Below are positions 41,216 to 55,581 of a DNA stretch of 64,000 nucleotides, piece after piece. Position 1 is the first letter of the stretch, and every line of letters begins with the position of its first letter. The notes under the pieces are model-generated. The model was not told the origin of the DNA and searched no databases. It worked only from the letters and a program-made list of their open reading frames with translations. Location: contig JALSNX010000026.1 in the NCBI GenBank assembly GCA_026986775.1, positions 1 through 64,000 on the forward strand, in the 5' to 3' direction. The position numbers and the translations under genes are program-made. This DNA is from Caldifarciminota bacterium (GTDB taxonomy: Bacteria > Hydrothermota > Hydrothermia > UBA1063 > CAJXJZ01).

Positions 41216-43117
41216 ATGGCAAGTTTAATTTTTATTACCTTATTTTTATCAACAACTTTCTACTGGACTGAAAATACATTTCAGGATTTTGCAGACGGGC
41301 ATTCTCCATGTATGGGGACTAATCTATACGCAACTTCAAAGGGCACTTTAACTCCACTCAACTTTGACAGGGATTTAAACGATGATGGATACATAGATGC
41401 TATTCTCATAAATGAATGGGCACTTACTTACAACGGATTTAAACATGACACCGTATCCTATATATACTGGAACAGTCTAAGAGGATTTAGTATTCGGAAA
41501 CGTGACTCTTTCAAAACCTATGGAGCTGAGGCTGCCGCTATAGAAGACATAAACAATGATGGTTACGAGGATATTATTGTTGCAAACAGCGGGTATGATA
41601 TAACCTTTCCTTATACATATATATATTACGGAAAACCAGATGGTTTTTCTTATTTTCCTGATGATTCTATTCTATCCTACCCCAATCATGGAAGTATCTC
41701 AGTCGGTGATATTAATCTTGATGGTTACCTTGATATAGTCACAAGCACATGGTATGGAAGCGACTATTCATTTATTTTTTACGGTAACGAGGGAGAATAC
41801 TCAAAAGTCTATTGTGATTCATTTCTAACTCACCAGGCACATGGCAACAAAATAGCCGACTTTGATAAAAATGGCCTGCCAGATGTATTTTTTGCTATTT
41901 ATTCAGCAAATAATAATGCAGATACGTGGTCATATATATATTACCAGAAAGGCACCCGCATATGGATAAAGGACTCTATCAAAACAATGGGCGCAGGAGA
42001 TGATATTTCTGTTATAGATCTAAATAGAGACGGTTTTTTAGATATTGTTATCCCAAACCACTCATCTGAGCCAATCCACCACTCTACTTATCACTGGTCA
42101 TACATTTACTACGGTTCTTTAAATGGATTTTCACACTTACCAGACGACTCTATTTATACTTTTGCCTCGTGGTCCTGCAGTGTCGGATATCTTAATGATG
42201 ATACTTTCCCTGATGTAGTATTTTCCAACTTTCCATATGATACTCAATATTCTTACTCTTATATTTATTACTCCAGAGACGGAACATTCGCACCTTATCC
42301 AGATGATTCATTACCTATAAACTGTGGTACTGGTATTACAATAGCCGATTTTGATAATGATGGTTCAGATGAAATTCTTATTGGCAGTCAGGAACACTCA
42401 CGTATAAACAATGCAATCTTATACAAAAAAAACTCAGCAGGGACATGGGTAGCAATAGATTATCTTCCAGCATACGGACAGGACGCTGGAATTACACAGG
42501 ACGCAGGCAACATTTATGATTTGAGTGACACTGTTACCTACTTTTCATCTGTGTTTGATGCATATTCCATAAAAGAGAAAGAAGTTATATGTGATACGGT
42601 TTTTTGGGAGACACAGATGACTTTTCATGGGGATACTGCGTTGGATACATTGCTGAGACCCTATATAGATGTATTTATTAGACACGGAACAGGAATAACA
42701 CCAGTTTCTATAAAATGGAGTTCATGGCACAAAGTTTTAAATCACTCAAAACTGCACAGTGCAAGATGCAGATTTGTCCAATACAAGGTGGTATTCCATA
42801 AGTTATGTTTTTCTTATATAGCACTGAAAAGTATAACAATAGGCTTGAAGATACCGGAAGATACCCTTCCGCCTGCAGTTGTTTATAATGTGATAAAAAA
42901 CCATGCAAGGCTTCCCGTACTCTTTGGACATCATACACCTGCAAACATAAATATTCTTGACAGGAACGGGCGAATACATGAACTTTTTAAAGGAGATATT
43001 ACAGGAAATGTATACTTTCTTGAACTTCCGGAAAAAATTACCACTGGCATTTACTGGATTATAATTAAGACTCCGTCTCGTAATTACAGAACACCAATTT
43101 TGATTATAAGAAACTAA
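41216..43117 (+). CDS. Secreted VCBS/FG-GAP repeat protein
   Basis: A 633-residue protein with a signal peptide (MASLIFITLFLSTTFYWT). Residues about 50-400 are at least six FG-GAP/VCBS repeats with Ca-binding cores such as DRDLNDDGYIDAIL, EDINNDGYEDIIVAN, GDINLDGYLDIVTST, DLNRDGFLDIVIPN and ADFDNDGSDEILIG. Each is joined to a W/Y-S-Y-IYY strand, as in a seven-bladed propeller. The last 70 residues (ANINILDRNGRIHELF ... GIYWIIIK) look like a shortened sorting tail. The SD GGGAG lies just before ATG, 19 nt after the rnpB 3' end. The role is probably adhesion or ligand binding. Confidence 0.75.
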   Translation: MASLIFITLFLSTTFYWTENTFQDFADGHSPCMGTNLYATSKGTLTPLNFDRDLNDDGYIDAILINEWALTYNGFKHDTVSYIYWNSLRGFSIRKRDSFKTYGAEAAAIEDINNDGYEDIIVANSGYDITFPYTYIYYGKPDGFSYFPDDSILSYPNHGSISVGDINLDGYLDIVTSTWYGSDYSFIFYGNEGEYSKVYCDSFLTHQAHGNKIADFDKNGLPDVFFAIYSANNNADTWSYIYYQKGTRIWIKDSIKTMGAGDDISVIDLNRDGFLDIVIPNHSSEPIHHSTYHWSYIYYGSLNGFSHLPDDSIYTFASWSCSVGYLNDDTFPDVVFSNFPYDTQYSYSYIYYSRDGTFAPYPDDSLPINCGTGITIADFDNDGSDEILIGSQEHSRINNAILYKKNSAGTWVAIDYLPAYGQDAGITQDAGNIYDLSDTVTYFSSVFDAYSIKEKEVICDTVFWETQMTFHGDTALDTLLRPYIDVFIRHGTGITPVSIKWSSWHKVLNHSKLHSARCRFVQYKVVFHKLCFSYIALKSITIGLKIPEDTLPPAVVYNVIKNHARLPVLFGHHTPANINILDRNGRIHELFKGDITGNVYFLELPEKITTGIYWIIIKTPSRNYRTPILIIRN

Positions 43118-43172: not shown

Positions 43173-44582
43173 ATGCTGTTTGTTTTACTGGTATTTCTAT
43201 TTCCGGTATCTTTTAATGGATATCTTGAGTCAGAATTCTATACGGAAAAAGAACAGAATTCTGTTTACTGGAACCTGTATAATCCAAAGAACTATCTGGA
43301 ATTTAAAGTAAGTGCTCATCCCTCTGGCATCGGTGAACTCTATCTTTCCTTCAATGCCCTGTCAAACTCCAACGGCACTCAATTTTTCTTCAACCAGGGC
43401 CATATTCAAACAAATGGTAAGCACCACAACATAGCCATATTTGCAAGAGAGGACAGATACTGGGTGCAGAGTCCTCTACTCTACCTTGCCAATCAGGACA
43501 GACTAAAGGACGATAATTTCGGGCCGAAAGGTGAGGGCATGCGACTGGATTTCTGGGAAACTTACGGATTTTTTGGTACATTTCTTGTATCCAAATATAA
43601 GAGCTGGGACGGAGAAGCATATATTGGTAGATTTGGAAGAAATTTCGGCAAAACTCTAACTCTAAGTTATCTATACATGAAGAAAGACTGGCGCGGCGGC
43701 AGAGAACCATCATATAACAGCATTAATTCTGGATATTTAAGACTGCATCTTTTCAGAACGCTTTACCTCTCTTCTGAATTCGCAACCTCAGTTCATCCAA
43801 ATCAGCCAGATAAAGACAGTATGAATGTTATGGACAAAAGTGCCATTGAGGTTGAACTCAGAAGAATTTATTTTAAAGGTTTTAATATTGCAGGCTCCTA
43901 TTTTAATTACGGAAAATTCTTTATTGACGAAATGTCAAACAAATTTAACCCCGGCTTTGACCACGAATTTGGCAGAGAGGGATTTTACGGCGAAGTACTC
44001 TATCTTGTTCCATACAGAGCAATCAACATTCTTTATAAAATTAGAAGATATAAGACCTGGTATGATTATCCTGTATTACTTCAATCTCCTTACATAGTAA
44101 CATGGCAATACGGTGAGGTATATGCTGAATTTAGAAAAGGGGTATCTGCCAAAATATTTGCAGAAAGGATTCTTAACAGGAAGGGCGATTGGAAACATGT
44201 GTTTTTCCAGATACAGGGAGAAAATACTCGCATGAAAGTGAAGTTACAGTATAAGATCAAGGACATAGGTATCAACGTTAATGGCAAAGATAATGACTAC
44301 TCCATTGGAGAGCGCTCTATTTTAGGTACTGAAATGTGGATTAATTTAACAGGCTGGCTCCAATTTTATATGCGAGGTGCGTTTGGTAATGGACAGGGCC
44401 TTAACTGGAACTCATTTTTTGCTCAACTTGCCATTAGAAAGTTCACAAACAGTGAGATTTTCATTGAATACGGGGATCCGGGGGCAACAGATGCAGACCT
44501 TGTTAATGACCCGGACATCTCTGACTTTCCTTATCAGAAAATCAGAGACAGATTCAAGATTCTCTTAAAATACTGGTTCTAA
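43173..44582 (+). CDS. Outer-membrane beta-barrel protein
   Basis: A 469-residue protein with a signal peptide (MLFVLLVFLFPVSFN). The mature part is a long run of amphipathic strands with aromatic girdles (GELYLSFNALSNSN, LTLSYLYMKKDW, IAGSYFNYGKFF, KLQYKIKDIGINV, LQFYMRGAFGN) and ends in a terminal Phe (ILLKYWF). This is the usual barrel end signature. It has no known family and is followed 14 nt later by the CBM48-barrel gene. It may be a pore for the ligand bound by that cluster. Confidence 0.65.
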   Translation: MLFVLLVFLFPVSFNGYLESEFYTEKEQNSVYWNLYNPKNYLEFKVSAHPSGIGELYLSFNALSNSNGTQFFFNQGHIQTNGKHHNIAIFAREDRYWVQSPLLYLANQDRLKDDNFGPKGEGMRLDFWETYGFFGTFLVSKYKSWDGEAYIGRFGRNFGKTLTLSYLYMKKDWRGGREPSYNSINSGYLRLHLFRTLYLSSEFATSVHPNQPDKDSMNVMDKSAIEVELRRIYFKGFNIAGSYFNYGKFFIDEMSNKFNPGFDHEFGREGFYGEVLYLVPYRAINILYKIRRYKTWYDYPVLLQSPYIVTWQYGEVYAEFRKGVSAKIFAERILNRKGDWKHVFFQIQGENTRMKVKLQYKIKDIGINVNGKDNDYSIGERSILGTEMWINLTGWLQFYMRGAFGNGQGLNWNSFFAQLAIRKFTNSEIFIEYGDPGATDADLVNDPDISDFPYQKIRDRFKILLKYWF

Positions 44583-44596
44583 AAAGGAGAAGGTTT

Positions 44597-46414
44597 ATGA
44601 TGCTTAAAATTTTTGCTTTTCTGCTTTTATCCTTTCCAGAAGGGACAAAAGAAGGTGTAAAGTTTACATACTTTGATCCCAATGCAAAAAGCGTATATCT
44701 TGTAGGAGACTTCAATAACTGGAATACATCTGCCACACCCATGGAGAGAAATTCAGAAGGTTTATGGAGCGTGATTATCCCGCTTTCACCGGGAAAATAC
44801 CAGTACAAATTCTTTGTTGATGGTAGATATGAACAGGACCCCACAAATCCTATTACTGAAGGTCCTTATGGGAACTCTGTTATAAAAGTTGGCAGAGGCT
44901 TTAAAGTCTTCCCCCCAACAATGTCAAACAATACACCCATGAACTCTTACGTAACTTTTGGGGGCAAAGCGAAGGGATTTTTAAAGATGGATAAAGATAC
45001 GTCCCGGCACTACCGTCTTATGAATACTGAAACAGACGTGAGAATGTCCGTTTCTGTTAATATAAAAGATGAGTCAAATCTTATAGCAATTCTACATTAT
45101 AATACGAATGCGGGACAGAACCCTTCAACACATCAGATTCCATTTTACTTTGAAAGGGCAAAACTCAATTTTGAAAAGGGTAATCTACGCTTTGTTTCAT
45201 TTTACAATATGTTTGCCTATGAAAGTTCTGACCCGATAAAACTTGTAGGCCGTGTTAATGAATTTGGATATCCCCTGGGAAGAGATGAGCAGGGTGTTTT
45301 AACTGAAATTTCTACAAACATAATCTCAAAAGTTACGGGCCTTTACTCAAATGAAATCTCAACTGGCAGAGATCTCGGTTTTATGAGATTGGCAAGAAAC
45401 TATAATAGATTTTACAGCGCCATTAGTTTTTATATATCCCATGGGAACAATATAGAGTATCAGGTTGTATCTCCTGATAGCGAAAAAGTGAATGATTCAA
45501 CACTTCTGCATTTCAACACATATGAAGACAGATATATATATTCCCTTGAATTCGGCGAAAAAAACGGCCTTAAATTTCAATTACTGTCAGGGCATGATGT
45601 AAAGCGTGCAAACTTCTACGATGTTGATGGTACCAAAACCCAGCAAAGTCCCATTGATAGAAAATGGGACATGGAAAAATGGTATAAATTCAGAACGGTT
45701 TATGATAATGAAAAACTCAATGCATACGTTGACATAGAACACCATAGTTTTGATAGTTTATTTGAATCTTACTATGGCAAGGGATTCAGTAAATTAAAGA
45801 CAGGCATACTTTTGAACATAAAACATTTTAAGGCGGGCTTTACCCAGCATTTTCTCTTTGCACATAAATACTCAACCACATGGGACGCACTTTTCAGGTC
45901 TTTTGATATAAACAGGCTCCCTTACATTGAATACCCTCTTTTAGGGTATTCAAGATATATGACTCTGTACGGAAAATGTAGATTTGAAATTTTCAAACTC
46001 CTTGACCTTGAGTTTTCTTTGAAGACAGCAAGATACGCCTTAAACCAGCCTCCACGCAGTGACGAGGCCCTCCTACGGGTTGCGCTTCCGGTAAAACGTG
46101 CAAAGGTCTATTATGACTTGAGATACTACCACCTGAAATCGTCTTTCCTGAACTTAGATAAAGAGTTTTTTGACCATTATCTGGAACTTTCATATGCGTT
46201 CTCAAGGAATCTTAAAACAAAGATAGGTTATGGGTTCTACCCTTACAATCTTCTTGATGAATACACTGCAAGGAGGGAATATCTCTCTAAAGCAGGAATT
46301 AACCTTACACAACTTCAAAATAACTATAGAGGTTTGGGTGGCATTATTGAGGAAGGAGAACTTCATCTGAAAAATACAAAGGAGATACGTGTATGGTTAG
46401 AACTATCTTTTTAA
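44597..46414 (+). CDS. CBM48-like glucan-binding domain fused to an outer-membrane barrel
   Basis: A 605-residue exported protein. After a short signal peptide (MLKIFAFLLLSF), residues about 20-100 form a CBM48/isoamylase-N-like domain (VKFTYFDPNAKSVYLVGDFNNWN ... GLWSVIIPLSPGKYQYKFFVDG ... DPTNP), with the sugar-binding W/GKYQYKF-type residues. Residues about 130-600 alternate as beta strands with many aromatics and end in WLELSF, a barrel-type C-terminus. The domain pairing suggests a surface protein that binds starch- or glycogen-like glucan at a porin-like barrel. I know of no described family with this exact fusion. SD AAAGGAGAAGG. Confidence 0.7.
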   Translation: MMLKIFAFLLLSFPEGTKEGVKFTYFDPNAKSVYLVGDFNNWNTSATPMERNSEGLWSVIIPLSPGKYQYKFFVDGRYEQDPTNPITEGPYGNSVIKVGRGFKVFPPTMSNNTPMNSYVTFGGKAKGFLKMDKDTSRHYRLMNTETDVRMSVSVNIKDESNLIAILHYNTNAGQNPSTHQIPFYFERAKLNFEKGNLRFVSFYNMFAYESSDPIKLVGRVNEFGYPLGRDEQGVLTEISTNIISKVTGLYSNEISTGRDLGFMRLARNYNRFYSAISFYISHGNNIEYQVVSPDSEKVNDSTLLHFNTYEDRYIYSLEFGEKNGLKFQLLSGHDVKRANFYDVDGTKTQQSPIDRKWDMEKWYKFRTVYDNEKLNAYVDIEHHSFDSLFESYYGKGFSKLKTGILLNIKHFKAGFTQHFLFAHKYSTTWDALFRSFDINRLPYIEYPLLGYSRYMTLYGKCRFEIFKLLDLEFSLKTARYALNQPPRSDEALLRVALPVKRAKVYYDLRYYHLKSSFLNLDKEFFDHYLELSYAFSRNLKTKIGYGFYPYNLLDEYTARREYLSKAGINLTQLQNNYRGLGGIIEEGELHLKNTKEIRVWLELSF

Positions 46415-46794
46415 GTGCAGTTATTCTTATCTCTGGGTGTGTAATTTTGAAAGAGGTAAAACCAAGACTTCCAGCACCGCACAAAACAAGGAAAGGCGTT
46501 CTGTTCCAATTTTACGCTCCTTCCGCAAGCTACGTCAATGTATGCGGCGATTTTAACAGATGGTGTGGCACACAGGATGGACCTTTTAACCCACACATAG
46601 GAAGGATGCATGACGACGGGAAAGATGGGGACAAAAAGGCGAAGGATGGTATATGGACCCTCATAATCCCCCTTCAGAACGGAAGTTATCAATATAAATA
46701 CGTGGTAAATGGCACAAGCTGGTATCTTGACCCATCAAATCCGGAGACAGTTCAGTCAGGAGGTTTTCAGAATTCTCTGTTAAGGGTAGAGTGA
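46393..46794 (+). CDS. CBM48-like lipoprotein
   Basis: A 133-residue lipoprotein with lipobox ILISGC (Cys16). It is a single CBM48-like domain: VLFQFYAPSASYVNVCGDFNRWC ... GIWTLIIPLQNGSYQYKYVVNG, then WYLDPSNPETV. The SD (GGAGA) lies inside the previous gene, which overlaps by 22 nt. A lipid-anchored glucan binder is likely; an extra Cys pair in the domain (VCGDF, WCGTQ) may form a disulfide. Confidence 0.85.
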   Translation: MVRTIFLSAVILISGCVILKEVKPRLPAPHKTRKGVLFQFYAPSASYVNVCGDFNRWCGTQDGPFNPHIGRMHDDGKDGDKKAKDGIWTLIIPLQNGSYQYKYVVNGTSWYLDPSNPETVQSGGFQNSLLRVE

Positions 46795-47162
46795 TGATAA
46801 AAACGTTTTACATTATAAACATAATCTCATTGTTACTTTATATCCCCGGTTTTTTCGTCCATATACAAAACACCTCATCTGTCCCATATCTCAATGTTCT
46901 TTTTTTGCTATTCGTTGCCATGCTTTTTCTATCCCTCAGAGTTGTAGCAACTGTGGTAAAGCGTTTTGCCAAACGATCAATAAAAACCGTATTGGGGTAT
47001 TTTATCGCTGTATTTCCATTGATTTTTCCGCTTTCAGGAGTTTTTCTATCTGCTTATCTTGATGATAAAAGGCAGATGATTCCATATATAGCCTTTCAGG
47101 TCTATTATTTTATCCGTTTTTATCCTGTTTTAAAACAAATGGAGGTTTACCATTATGTTTAG
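46791..47162 (+). CDS. Small multi-helix membrane protein
   Basis: A 123-residue protein with about three or four transmembrane helices (IINIISLLLYIPGFFV; VLFLLFVAMLFLSLRVVATV; VLGYFIAVFPLIFPLSGVFL). No family is recognised. It overlaps the previous gene by 4 nt and the next by 8 nt, so it belongs to the CBM cluster. Basic loops (KRFAKRSIK) suggest an inner-membrane protein. Confidence 0.65.
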   Translation: MMIKTFYIINIISLLLYIPGFFVHIQNTSSVPYLNVLFLLFVAMLFLSLRVVATVVKRFAKRSIKTVLGYFIAVFPLIFPLSGVFLSAYLDDKRQMIPYIAFQVYYFIRFYPVLKQMEVYHYV

Positions 47163-48462
47163 AAAATATTTTAAAGCAACAATCAGTTTAATGACTTTTA
47201 TCATCATAAGTTCATGTGCCAGCAAAGAGGGCAACGTGATAGTAAATCCACCTGGTGAAGAATTTAAAACCCAGTATCGGTCAATGCAACTTGTTGGTGA
47301 TTTCAATGGCTGGGCACTTGAAGACCTTTCATCAACAGAAATGAATCTGGTGGCAGACTGGACATGGGAAAAAATACAGTATTTTTCAGGAACAAGAGAC
47401 AGTATAATGTTTAAATTCGTTCCAAATAGTAACTGGGATCTTGCATTTGGAACACAGGGACCTGATAGTGGGCTTTCAGGTTATGCAGAACCTAACTGTA
47501 CAGGCACCGGTAATCATATCACAGCCGGTCCAATAAATAAGGCAGGATACTGGAAATTTACCTTCAATGAACAAACTCTGTTTTATTCCATAACCTTCTA
47601 TTCTGCACCTGGCGGTGCTATAAAGGGTACTGTTGATTTTACTGATGTAACATCTCCTCCATACCCCCCTACCACAATTTCCGCATACAGTGCTTCAGAA
47701 AAAATAGCAGAAACTCATACAGATACAATGACATCCGAATATCTTTTATCTCCCCTTCCTAATGGGACTTATACCATTGTTTTTCAGGCTCCAGGATACA
47801 TACCGGATACTGTTCAAAATGTGACAGTCAACAATGATACTGCTTCAATAGATGTGGTGCTTGAGAAAGCTCATGGCATCATTATTGATGGCGACCTTTC
47901 AGATTGGGATACGCCTTCAGTATACGACACCATAGGAGACAGCCCCTGGGGAAGCAATGGCGATATAGGGTCACTATACGCCACCATAGAAAACGACACA
48001 CTGTTTATAGGGGTACAGGGAGAAGTTACCAACAATGCCCTTATAGTATATTTCCATGTAGAGCCATATGATTCCTCGCTTGGATATACAGATATGGACA
48101 ATATAGATTTTTATGCACGTAAATTCACTTTTCCTGACAGTTTAAAGGCTCAATACATTCTGGCACAGTGGGTTGATGGTAGTGTGACACCTGGTTTCAG
48201 AAGTATAGATACCACAGGCCGAACAGTTGACTTAACAGATTCTATAAATGTGGCAAGTTCTCTGAAGCCATCAAGTATCGGAGCAATAGAAGCGGCCATC
48301 CCCATACAACTCATAAGCACGGGACAGCATGGTAGAATTGGAATAGTAGCAGTAATCGCAGGTGGTGACCATTATGACGGCCCTGAAAGTGTGCCATCCA
48401 ACAATTTACAGGGTAATGGAAGCGGGGCCATCCTTAACAATCTCTATTTTATTCAGTTTTAG
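47155..48462 (+). CDS. Multidomain surface lipoprotein with CBM-like domains
   Basis: A 435-residue lipoprotein, lipobox IISSC (Cys21). The first domain (about 35-155) is a glucan-binding-like fold: MQLVGDFNGWALEDLSS ... FKFVPNSNWDLAFG ... GYWKFTFNEQTLFYSI, similar in plan to SusE/F or CBM48-type starch-binding units. A carboxypeptidase-regulatory-like domain follows (GAIKGTVDFTDVTSPP ... LPNGTYTIVFQAPGYIPD). A C-terminal CBM9/DOMON-like domain begins at DGDLSDWDTPSVYD (about 240-435). There is no hydrolase motif. It completes a five-gene cluster that looks built to bind glucan at the cell surface. Confidence 0.75.
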   Translation: MFRKYFKATISLMTFIIISSCASKEGNVIVNPPGEEFKTQYRSMQLVGDFNGWALEDLSSTEMNLVADWTWEKIQYFSGTRDSIMFKFVPNSNWDLAFGTQGPDSGLSGYAEPNCTGTGNHITAGPINKAGYWKFTFNEQTLFYSITFYSAPGGAIKGTVDFTDVTSPPYPPTTISAYSASEKIAETHTDTMTSEYLLSPLPNGTYTIVFQAPGYIPDTVQNVTVNNDTASIDVVLEKAHGIIIDGDLSDWDTPSVYDTIGDSPWGSNGDIGSLYATIENDTLFIGVQGEVTNNALIVYFHVEPYDSSLGYTDMDNIDFYARKFTFPDSLKAQYILAQWVDGSVTPGFRSIDTTGRTVDLTDSINVASSLKPSSIGAIEAAIPIQLISTGQHGRIGIVAVIAGGDHYDGPESVPSNNLQGNGSGAILNNLYFIQF

Positions 48463-52902: not shown

Positions 52903-55581
52903 TCACACTTCAGGTTTCAAGAACATTTCCGATATAAAAATGGACGGCTCATTACGATACCTTCCATATCTAAATTTAGGATAGGATAAGTAGAGTTTAT
53001 CCTGCGAGCGGGTAATTGCAACGTAAAATAGCCTTCTTTCCTCTTCTATATCCTCATCCTTACCATACCTGCTTAAAAGAGGAAATCTTCCCTCATAAAG
53101 CCCAACCACAAAGACGCATGGAAATTCAAGACCCTTGGCCTGATGAACGGTCATCAATTTAACACCACGCTGACTCTGAGATTCAATTCCAAGAGTTCTC
53201 AAAAGTGCCACATCGTTCTGCAACTTCCTGTGTTCTCCCCTTTTGTATCTGCCGATAAACTCAAGAAATTCCAGAACATTTTCTCTCTCCTGTATGCGGG
53301 CAGAACTTCTTGCCCGTTCAAGCCTTTCAAAATATCCAAATTGCTCAAGAAAACTCTCCACTACCTCAAGGGGTGTCAATTCAGAAAGCAATTTCTCATC
53401 ATAACTTTTTGCAAACTGTTTAAGAACTGAAATGGCGGAATCCGCATTTTCTTTTTCCTCCATGCTTAATCTAATTTTAGTTCTCCTGCCTGTAAATTTT
53501 GAAGCAACATACCTTGAAGTTTTTCCAGAAAGACCAATGAACCTTCTTGCAATAAGTTCCACATCACCATAAGAAGCATTTTTTTCTGCGAGTTTGAGAA
53601 TACCTATTATTGACCGTATTTCTTCTCTCTCATAAAAACCACCTTCACTCTGAAGATTGTAAGGAATATCCTCTCTCATAAAGGTCTCCTCAAAATATCT
53701 GGAATAGGCATTCACCCTGTAAATTACGCTTATGTCGTCATACTGTAAGCCCTTCTCCACTTCTTCCTTGATTGTTTTTGCCACCCATGAGGCTTCTTCC
53801 TCTTCTGAAGTGGCTTCTTTTAAAAGTATAACCCCTTCTGTTTTAGCCATGGACACCATTGGCTTTTTAACCCTTTTTTTGTTAAACGATATGAGTCTTT
53901 CAGCAGTTTCAAGTATCCTCTGTGGAACCCTGAAACTCGTGGTCAGATAGAACCTTTTAACTTTTCCCTCATAGTACCTTTCAAGTTCTTTAATAAATTC
54001 AGGATTTGCCCCGCGAAATCCATAAATTGACTGGTCATCATCACCCGTCAAAAACAGATTTCCATGCTTTTCTGAAAGAATCATAAGCAGGCGAAATTGT
54101 GCCGGGTCAATGTCCTGAAACTCATCAACCAGAATATATCTAAATCTTGATGTAAATTCATCCCGTATGTCTTCAAATTCTTCAAGGACTTTAACGGCAT
54201 ACATGAGTATGTCACCATAGTCCACCATATTCCTTGACATGAGGAGATTCTGATAACTCATATAAACCGTTGCTATACGCTTTTCCCATGACGTCTTTGC
54301 CAGTTTTCTGTAATCTTCCGGGCTTATAAGATTCGTCTTTGCACGGTCAATGGCACGCTTTATACCCTTTGCTCTCCCCGAAGATGAAAGGTTCTCAATT
54401 ATAGAAAGCGCATCCTCAGGGGAAATGATTACAAGGTCTTCCTCACGGAATCCCAATCTATCAGCACCAGCCAGGAAAATTCTCAAAGCCATCTGGTGAA
54501 ATGTACCTGCCCACAGTTTTCTGGTAGCAAGTTCGCCCAGTAAGGACGCCACTTCCATTTTAAGATTGTAAGCGGCTTTTCCAGTAAAAGTAATCGCAAG
54601 AATATTTTCAGGTTTTACATGTTTTTCCCTGATTAAATATACAATACGGCGTGCAAGGGTATAAGTCTTGCCAGTACCAGCACTACCTATAATCAGCACA
54701 ACACCATCGCCATCAAGTACCGCTTCTTCCTGTGCTGGAGTAAGACCTGAAAGAATTTCGCTTTTTTTCGCTCTATCCTCAAGTAATCCAGAGATTTCAA
54801 GCATGTAACCACTCTTTTTAAGTGCATTTATTAACTCCTCACATGACTGAAATCTATCATCAGGCCTTCTTGACATGGCTTTCTTTACCAGATACCAGAG
54901 GTCAGGCGAAAGCCCCCTTATTTTTCTGAGTTTTCCATGCAATATTCTCTGTCTGAGTTCCTCAAAAGACTCACCTTCATAAGGTAATCTCCCTGATAGC
55001 ATTTCATATAAAATAACACCTATTGAGTAAATGTCACTTCTTTTATCATACTCTCCCTTCCATGCTTCAGGTGACATATACACAGGTGTTCCTGCAACAG
55101 ACAGCGAAAGGGAAAGGCCTGTTTTTATTCTGGCAAGACCAAAATCAGTTATTTTAACCTTACCATCATCTGTTAAGAGTATATTCTCAGGTTTTAAGTC
55201 TCTATGCAGAATACCCTTTCTGTGAGCATACCCAACCCCTTGAAGTATCATCTCAACAATAGAAACTGCCTTTTCCATGCCAACTTTTCTCAAACGGTCC
55301 ATATAACTCCTCAAAGACTCACCTTCAACATACTCCATGGTAAGAACAATTCTTCCATCTATCTCCTCAAGGGAATAAAATCTCACTATGTTGGGATGCT
55401 CTAAAGAAGCAAGAACCTTTGCTTCCTGCTTCAACATTTCTATGTCTTTTGCCCTCTGTCTTGAGATTTTAATGGCAAACTCCCGCTCAATAAGCGTGTC
55501 AACTGCTAAAAACACATCGGAAAACTGCCCACCTCCTATCCACTTTATGATTCTGTACTTTCCCAGTCTATCACCTAACAT
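52903..55581 (-). CDS. Fusion of Hanks-type Ser/Thr protein kinase and UvrD/PcrA-type helicase
   Basis: An 892-residue single open frame. Residues 1-262 are a complete eukaryotic-like kinase: glycine loop IGGGQFSDV (15-23), AIK lysine K38, alphaC Glu53, HRDLKPEN (126-133; catalytic D128), DFG (146-148) and SPE (170-172). Residues about 277-892 are an SF1A helicase: Q motif LTPAQEEAV (280-288), Walker A GSAGTGKT (299-306), TFTGKAA, DEFQD (486-490), GDDDQSIYGFRGA (513-525), TTSFRVP, VHQAKGLEFP and RLFYVAITR. Both catalytic sets look intact. No frameshift or stop separates them, and TATAAT lies 6 nt before the ATG. I do not know of a described protein of this type. A kinase that controls helicase loading or phosphorylates DNA-repair partners is plausible but inferred. 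Confidence 0.93.
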   Translation of the reverse strand: MLGDRLGKYRIIKWIGGGQFSDVFLAVDTLIEREFAIKISRQRAKDIEMLKQEAKVLASLEHPNIVRFYSLEEIDGRIVLTMEYVEGESLRSYMDRLRKVGMEKAVSIVEMILQGVGYAHRKGILHRDLKPENILLTDDGKVKITDFGLARIKTGLSLSLSVAGTPVYMSPEAWKGEYDKRSDIYSIGVILYEMLSGRLPYEGESFEELRQRILHGKLRKIRGLSPDLWYLVKKAMSRRPDDRFQSCEELINALKKSGYMLEISGLLEDRAKKSEILSGLTPAQEEAVLDGDGVVLIIGSAGTGKTYTLARRIVYLIREKHVKPENILAITFTGKAAYNLKMEVASLLGELATRKLWAGTFHQMALRIFLAGADRLGFREEDLVIISPEDALSIIENLSSSGRAKGIKRAIDRAKTNLISPEDYRKLAKTSWEKRIATVYMSYQNLLMSRNMVDYGDILMYAVKVLEEFEDIRDEFTSRFRYILVDEFQDIDPAQFRLLMILSEKHGNLFLTGDDDQSIYGFRGANPEFIKELERYYEGKVKRFYLTTSFRVPQRILETAERLISFNKKRVKKPMVSMAKTEGVILLKEATSEEEEASWVAKTIKEEVEKGLQYDDISVIYRVNAYSRYFEETFMREDIPYNLQSEGGFYEREEIRSIIGILKLAEKNASYGDVELIARRFIGLSGKTSRYVASKFTGRRTKIRLSMEEKENADSAISVLKQFAKSYDEKLLSELTPLEVVESFLEQFGYFERLERARSSARIQERENVLEFLEFIGRYKRGEHRKLQNDVALLRTLGIESQSQRGVKLMTVHQAKGLEFPCVFVVGLYEGRFPLLSRYGKDEDIEEERRLFYVAITRSQDKLYLSYPKFRYGRYRNEPSIFISEMFLKPEV

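What the first reader, a model, noticed from the sequence alone, without database searches (positions are those of the whole stretch)
43173..48462. Surface cluster built around three glucan-binding-like proteins and two barrels
Seen: a barrel, a CBM48-like domain fused to a second barrel, a single-domain CBM48 lipoprotein, a small membrane protein and a lipoprotein with starch-binding-like, regulatory-like and CBM9-like domains. The last four overlap. Known: Sus systems use SusC/D plus binding lipoproteins and hydrolases; none of SusC, SusD or a glycoside hydrolase is present here. Inferred: a different glucan capture or import apparatus, or a system that displays the cell's own glycogen-like polymer.
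Basis: partly seen in the sequence, partly recalled or inferred. Interest (0 to 1): 0.72.

Follow-up and report, generated by a model that had tools for sequence, protein, structure and literature searches.

The report
Starch-uptake outer-membrane module in WOR-3
Five linked genes of an uncultured WOR-3 bacterium most likely build an outer-membrane device that catches starch- or glycogen-like sugars and passes them inward; its two predicted barrel proteins match no described family, and a version of the same gene set is found in other bacterial phyla.

Summary
Five same-strand genes, the last four overlapping, encode a predicted outer-membrane barrel (BarA), a CBM48 domain fused to a second predicted barrel, a CBM48 lipoprotein, a small membrane protein and a three-domain lipoprotein. 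The CBM48 glycogen-binding residues are conserved.

Context strongly supports glucan import. Across 147 genomes of the phylum, BarA and the CBM48-barrel travel together (20 of 21) and co-occur with one MalE-like ABC binding protein (19 of 21) and a secreted CBM48-GH57 enzyme (17 of 21). In two WOR-3 families MalE-like, CBM9-like, BarA and CBM48-barrel genes form one cluster. In families lacking the barrels the same MalE sits between MalFG and alpha-glucan enzymes. This genome has those partners at other loci, so 'no hydrolase' is only locally true. Krumholzibacteriota and Latescibacterota carry a similar gene order.

Best reading: a porin-type alpha-glucan uptake module without TonB plug, feeding MalEFG. 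Display of the cell's own glycogen is unsupported. The fused CBM48 probably faces the periplasm. No experiment was done.

The parts
43173..44582 (+). BarA: predicted outer-membrane beta-barrel, 469 aa, no known family
44597..46414 (+). CBM48-barrel fusion, 605 aa: N-terminal CBM48 followed by a predicted beta-barrel of no known family
44648..44881 (+). CBM48 / AMPK-type glycogen-binding domain of the fusion (aa 18-95)
46393..46794 (+). single-domain CBM48 lipoprotein, 133 aa (lipobox ISGC)
46791..47162 (+). small membrane protein, 123 aa, about three hydrophobic segments; positional equivalents in relatives, function unknown
47155..48462 (+). LipX, 435 aa lipoprotein: starch-binding-like N-terminal domain, CarboxypepD_reg domain, CBM9-like C-terminal part
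47620..47865 (+). CarboxypepD_reg-like domain of LipX (aa 156-237)
47863..48459 (+). CBM9-like part of LipX, homologous to the separate CBM9-like protein that follows the MalE-like gene elsewhere

Best explanation
The cluster encodes the outer-membrane part of an alpha-glucan (starch, glycogen or maltodextrin) uptake route. Shown by sequence: two predicted barrels without a TonB plug domain, one carrying an N-terminal CBM48 with an intact glycogen-binding face, plus a CBM48 lipoprotein and a multi-domain lipoprotein. Shown by context: steady association with one MalE-like ABC binding protein and with a secreted CBM48-GH57 enzyme. Inferred steps: the secreted enzyme cuts glucan outside the cell; the lipoproteins and the barrel-borne CBM48 hold chains at the outer membrane; dextrins pass through BarA and/or the CBM48-barrel by porin-type facilitated diffusion; the CBM48 at the periplasmic mouth acts as a receiver that passes chains to the MalE-like protein; MalFG, encoded elsewhere, imports them. 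Which barrel is the channel and on which side each CBM48 lies is not known.
For: CBM48 with conserved ligand residues. MalE-like gene (NCBIfam MalE E 1.4e-32) and CBM9-like gene directly upstream of BarA and the fusion in families f7 and f29; the same pair in this genome on contig C4. Co-occurrence in 147 genomes: BarA with the fusion 20/21, with the MalE-like protein 19/21, with secreted CBM48-GH57 17/21; p about 1e-7 or lower with genera as units. In f36/f37 orthologues of the same MalE lie between MalFG and CBM48-GH57 enzymes, in f37 with phosphorylase and 4-alpha-glucanotransferase; orthologues of that MalFG are on contig C3 of this genome. A similar gene order in Krumholzibacteriota and Latescibacterota.
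Against: No fold, no binding and no transport data. The MalE, MalF and MalG matches are below the NCBIfam equivalog cut-offs, so the sugar is inferred. In this genome MalE, MalFG and the hydrolase are on other contigs. Co-occurrence is inflated by shared descent within the class. CBM48 also occurs in proteins that act on other glycans (GH9 cellulases, PMC6851124). G047 and G020 have the module but no such GH57 was found in them.
Confidence: 0.7

Rival explanations
1. A capture or adhesion module only: the barrels anchor glucan-binding domains that hold starch or the secreted amylase at the cell, and dextrins enter by another porin or a TonB receptor.
For: Several binding domains and no enzyme in the cluster; a weak SusF_SusE match in one LipX orthologue; TonB receptors are present in this genome and in f37 one lies divergent to the MalFG-MalE operon.
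Against: Two barrels would be costly anchors; the lipoproteins could do it alone. In genomes with the module the barrels, not a TonB receptor, sit with the MalE-like gene.
Confidence: 0.17
2. The system displays or exports the cell's own glycogen-like polymer.
For: The genome can make glycogen: GlgA and a GH57 branching enzyme at C27. Trehalose-synthesis genes are next to the cluster in family f2.
Against: No polymer synthesis or export gene is linked to the module in the other neighbourhoods read; the linked genes are an uptake binding protein and secreted hydrolases.
Confidence: 0.05
3. A part of a type IX-like secretion or surface-attachment system whose CBMs are cargo-linked, with sugar binding secondary.
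For: PorV-family match in the Krumholzibacteriota version (L038, E 5e-7, below cut-off) and a T9SS tail in P0001, both inside versions of the module.
Against: No PorV-like gene and no convincing T9SS tail in the window cluster; BarA and the fusion do not match T9SS components; the most regular partners are sugar-uptake genes.
Confidence: 0.05

Closest known systems
Bacteroidota starch utilisation system (Sus: SusC/D/E/F/G)
   Same: Outer-membrane capture of starch by lipoproteins, a secreted or surface amylase, import into the periplasm
   Different: No SusC/TonB plug and no SusD seen in the module; two plug-free predicted barrels, CBM48 instead of SusD-type binding, and an ABC transporter as the inner-membrane step
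Sugar porins LamB and ScrY with MalEFGK
   Same: Plug-free outer-membrane channel feeding a MalE-type ABC importer; ScrY also has an N-terminal periplasmic extension (PMC10542722, PMC6173795)
   Different: No sequence relation to LamB or ScrY; the extension here is a CBM48 domain, not a coiled coil; binding lipoproteins are part of the unit
AMPK beta glycogen-binding domain / CBM48
   Same: Same domain with the key Trp, Lys, Trp/Tyr and Asn kept
   Different: Fused to a predicted outer-membrane barrel or carried by a lipoprotein, not part of a kinase or a glucan enzyme
CBM9-DUF5916 barrels
   Same: A carbohydrate-binding-like domain joined to an outer-membrane barrel (DUF5916 domain content is from general knowledge); common in this phylum (119 of 147 genomes)
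   Different: No profile similarity of BarA or the fusion to DUF5916

Membership tests
CBM48 (glycogen-binding) | Match to the CBM48 or AMPK1_CBM model over the curated cut-off | tested here: met
   56.3 and 38.7 bits against a cut-off of 22.4
CBM48 (glycogen-binding) | Ligand-contact residues kept | tested here: met
   Residues equivalent to AMPK W100, K126, W133 and N150 in all WOR-3 orthologues
Sus system | SusC-type TonB-dependent transporter in the locus | tested here: not met
   No Plug or TonB barrel match in any protein of the cluster
Sus system | SusD-type lipoprotein in the locus | tested here: not met
   No SusD match among the cluster proteins; the rest of the genome was not searched for SusD
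Sus system | SusE/F-type starch-binding lipoprotein | tested here: inconclusive
   One of 11 LipX orthologues matches SusF_SusE at E 0.0028
LamB/ScrY sugar porins | Sequence homology to known sugar porins | tested here: not met
   No Pfam match and no solved chain at E up to 10 that is a porin
LamB/ScrY sugar porins | 18-stranded barrel with inward loop | not testable with these tools
DUF5916 barrels | Profile similarity to DUF5916 | tested here: not met
   hhalign probability 6.2% or less for BarA and the fusion
Maltodextrin ABC uptake (MalE association) | Linked MalE-like binding protein with MalFG | tested here: inconclusive
   MalE-like gene linked in f7/f29, on another contig in this genome; match to MalE is below the equivalog cut-off

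The most novel reading that the evidence does not exclude
A TonB-independent outer-membrane alpha-glucan importer built from two uncharacterised barrel families, one carrying a periplasmic CBM48 as a receiver, shared by several phyla and standing in for a TonB-receptor route that other families of the phylum may use with the same MalEFG.
Probability: 0.35. Interest if true: 0.7.

Novelty: new variant of a known kind. Interest (0 to 1): 0.52.

Why it matters
Outer-membrane glycan uptake is understood mainly from SusCD and LamB-type porins. A conserved module with two uncharacterised barrel families, and a CBM48 joined to one of them, would be a further solution to the same problem. It occurs in candidate phyla known mostly from assembled genomes, and would give functions to families that at present have no name in Pfam. 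It also offers a clear test of how a binding domain on a porin changes transport.

Tried and rejected
BarA or the fusion as DUF5916 barrels: suggested by a superficial 'ERRxFF' motif, rejected by profile comparison. BarA and the fusion as relatives of each other: no support (6%). Sequence match of the barrels to solved porins: none. FG-GAP protein upstream (41216-43117) as a sixth member: rejected, absent at that place in the three close relatives. Literature on CBM48 fused to an outer-membrane barrel, or on starch uptake in WOR-3: nothing found in the held library, which lacks most subscription journals. The strand-periodicity score is not specific: LipX, which looks like soluble beta domains, also scores 3.6.

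Full report
Observation. The window is part of a 2.18 Mb, 30-contig genome whose nearest named relatives are candidate division WOR-3 bacteria, NCBI phylum Caldifarciminota. CBM48 is clear in two proteins, closest among solved structures to the AMPK beta glycogen-binding domain. The residues that bind sugar there are kept in all WOR-3 orthologues and only partly in the distant phyla (the AMPK residue numbers are from general knowledge). LipX has a CarboxypepD_reg domain in all 11 orthologues and one weak SusF_SusE match; its C-terminal part belongs to the CBM9-like family aligned here. A Pfam CBM9 match was not obtained.

The barrels. BarA and the part of the fusion behind CBM48 match nothing in Pfam, NCBIfam or the sequences of solved structures (the two hits are 41-residue chance-level matches to SH3 domains). 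They have signal peptides by eye, an excess of amphipathic strands over shuffled sequence and a C-terminal Phe, 20/20 for the fusion and 19/20 for BarA. They are not detectably related to each other or to DUF5916 barrels. BarA has a strongly conserved block around REDR-x-W-x-x-SPLLFLV-x-x-DR-x-x-DD (consensus).

Conservation. Full-length CBM48-barrels were found in 19 of 147 genomes of the phylum, plus one cut by a contig end; BarA in 21. The gene order is kept in the genus, the order and part of the class with different flanks (V-ATPase, MgtE and FeoB in this genus, trehalose synthesis in part of the next family), so the cluster is a unit and not a chance neighbourhood. In family f3 the BarA gene lies on another contig than the fusion. 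One Krumholzibacteriota and four Latescibacterota records carry a BarA-like gene followed by a CBM48-barrel gene, in four of them with the CBM9-like gene upstream (not seen in L051), and followed in three by one or two CBM48 lipoprotein genes. The barrel part of the fusion is homologous across phyla (hhalign 98%, E 1e-13); for BarA the probability is 61 to 97% depending on the set aligned.

Function by context. In f7 and f29 a MalE-like binding protein and the CBM9-like protein are encoded just upstream of BarA and the fusion. The MalE-like protein co-occurs with BarA in 19 of 21 genomes, and with genera as units p is about 1e-8; relatedness within the class inflates all such numbers. In f36/f37, which lack the barrels, orthologues of the same MalE lie between MalFG and CBM48-GH57 enzymes; in f37 a phosphorylase and, in one genome (L153), a 4-alpha-glucanotransferase and a GH13 domain were identified there too, and a TonB receptor is divergent to the operon. 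In the window's genome the pieces are at C1 (secreted 2xCBM48-GH57-Glucodextran_C), C3 (MalFG beside a Glucodextran_C protein), C4 (MalE-like plus CBM9-like) and C26 (this cluster). No GH13 was found in this genome.

Mechanism. Shown: domains, gene order, co-occurrence. Inferred: external cutting, capture, passage through a plug-free barrel, hand-over to MalE, ABC import. Because both ends of an even-stranded barrel face the periplasm (general knowledge), the fused CBM48 is more likely a periplasmic receiver than a surface lure. ScrY, a sucrose porin with a periplasmic N-terminal coiled coil for which a sugar-slide role was proposed (Dumas 2000, known here only by its title as cited in PMC6173795; porin class in PMC3706956), is the closest working analogue; membership in that family was tested by sequence only and not met.

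Verdict. The finding is real. It is a new variant of a known kind (outer-membrane alpha-glucan uptake), with two uncharacterised barrel families as the new element.

Noticed in passing
window 52903-55581 (-): 892-aa protein with an N-terminal Ser/Thr protein kinase domain fused to a UvrD-like helicase (Pfam E 7e-56 and 6e-70); the same fusion is in a close relative (L036).
   Followed up: partly
window 41216-43117 (+): FG-GAP repeat protein with a weak T9SS-type tail just upstream of BarA; not at that place in the three close relatives, so probably a lineage-specific insertion.
   Followed up: partly
L126 9721-12792 (-) (P0001): 1024-aa secreted protein between BarA and the CBM48-barrel in family f7, with a T9SS tail (E 1.3e-5) but no catalytic family match; it reads like a distant GH57-type fold by eye.
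   Followed up: partly
L153, L167: In family f37 a TonB-dependent receptor with a CarboxypepD_reg domain is divergent to the MalFG-MalE-amylase operon, where other families have the BarA module: possible replacement of one import route by another.
   Followed up: partly
L038, L040, L042: In Krumholzibacteriota/Latescibacterota the module is preceded by a protein like pyruvate phosphate dikinase (by eye), and in L040 and L042 also by a DUF4388-type protein (Pfam match in L042).
   Followed up: no
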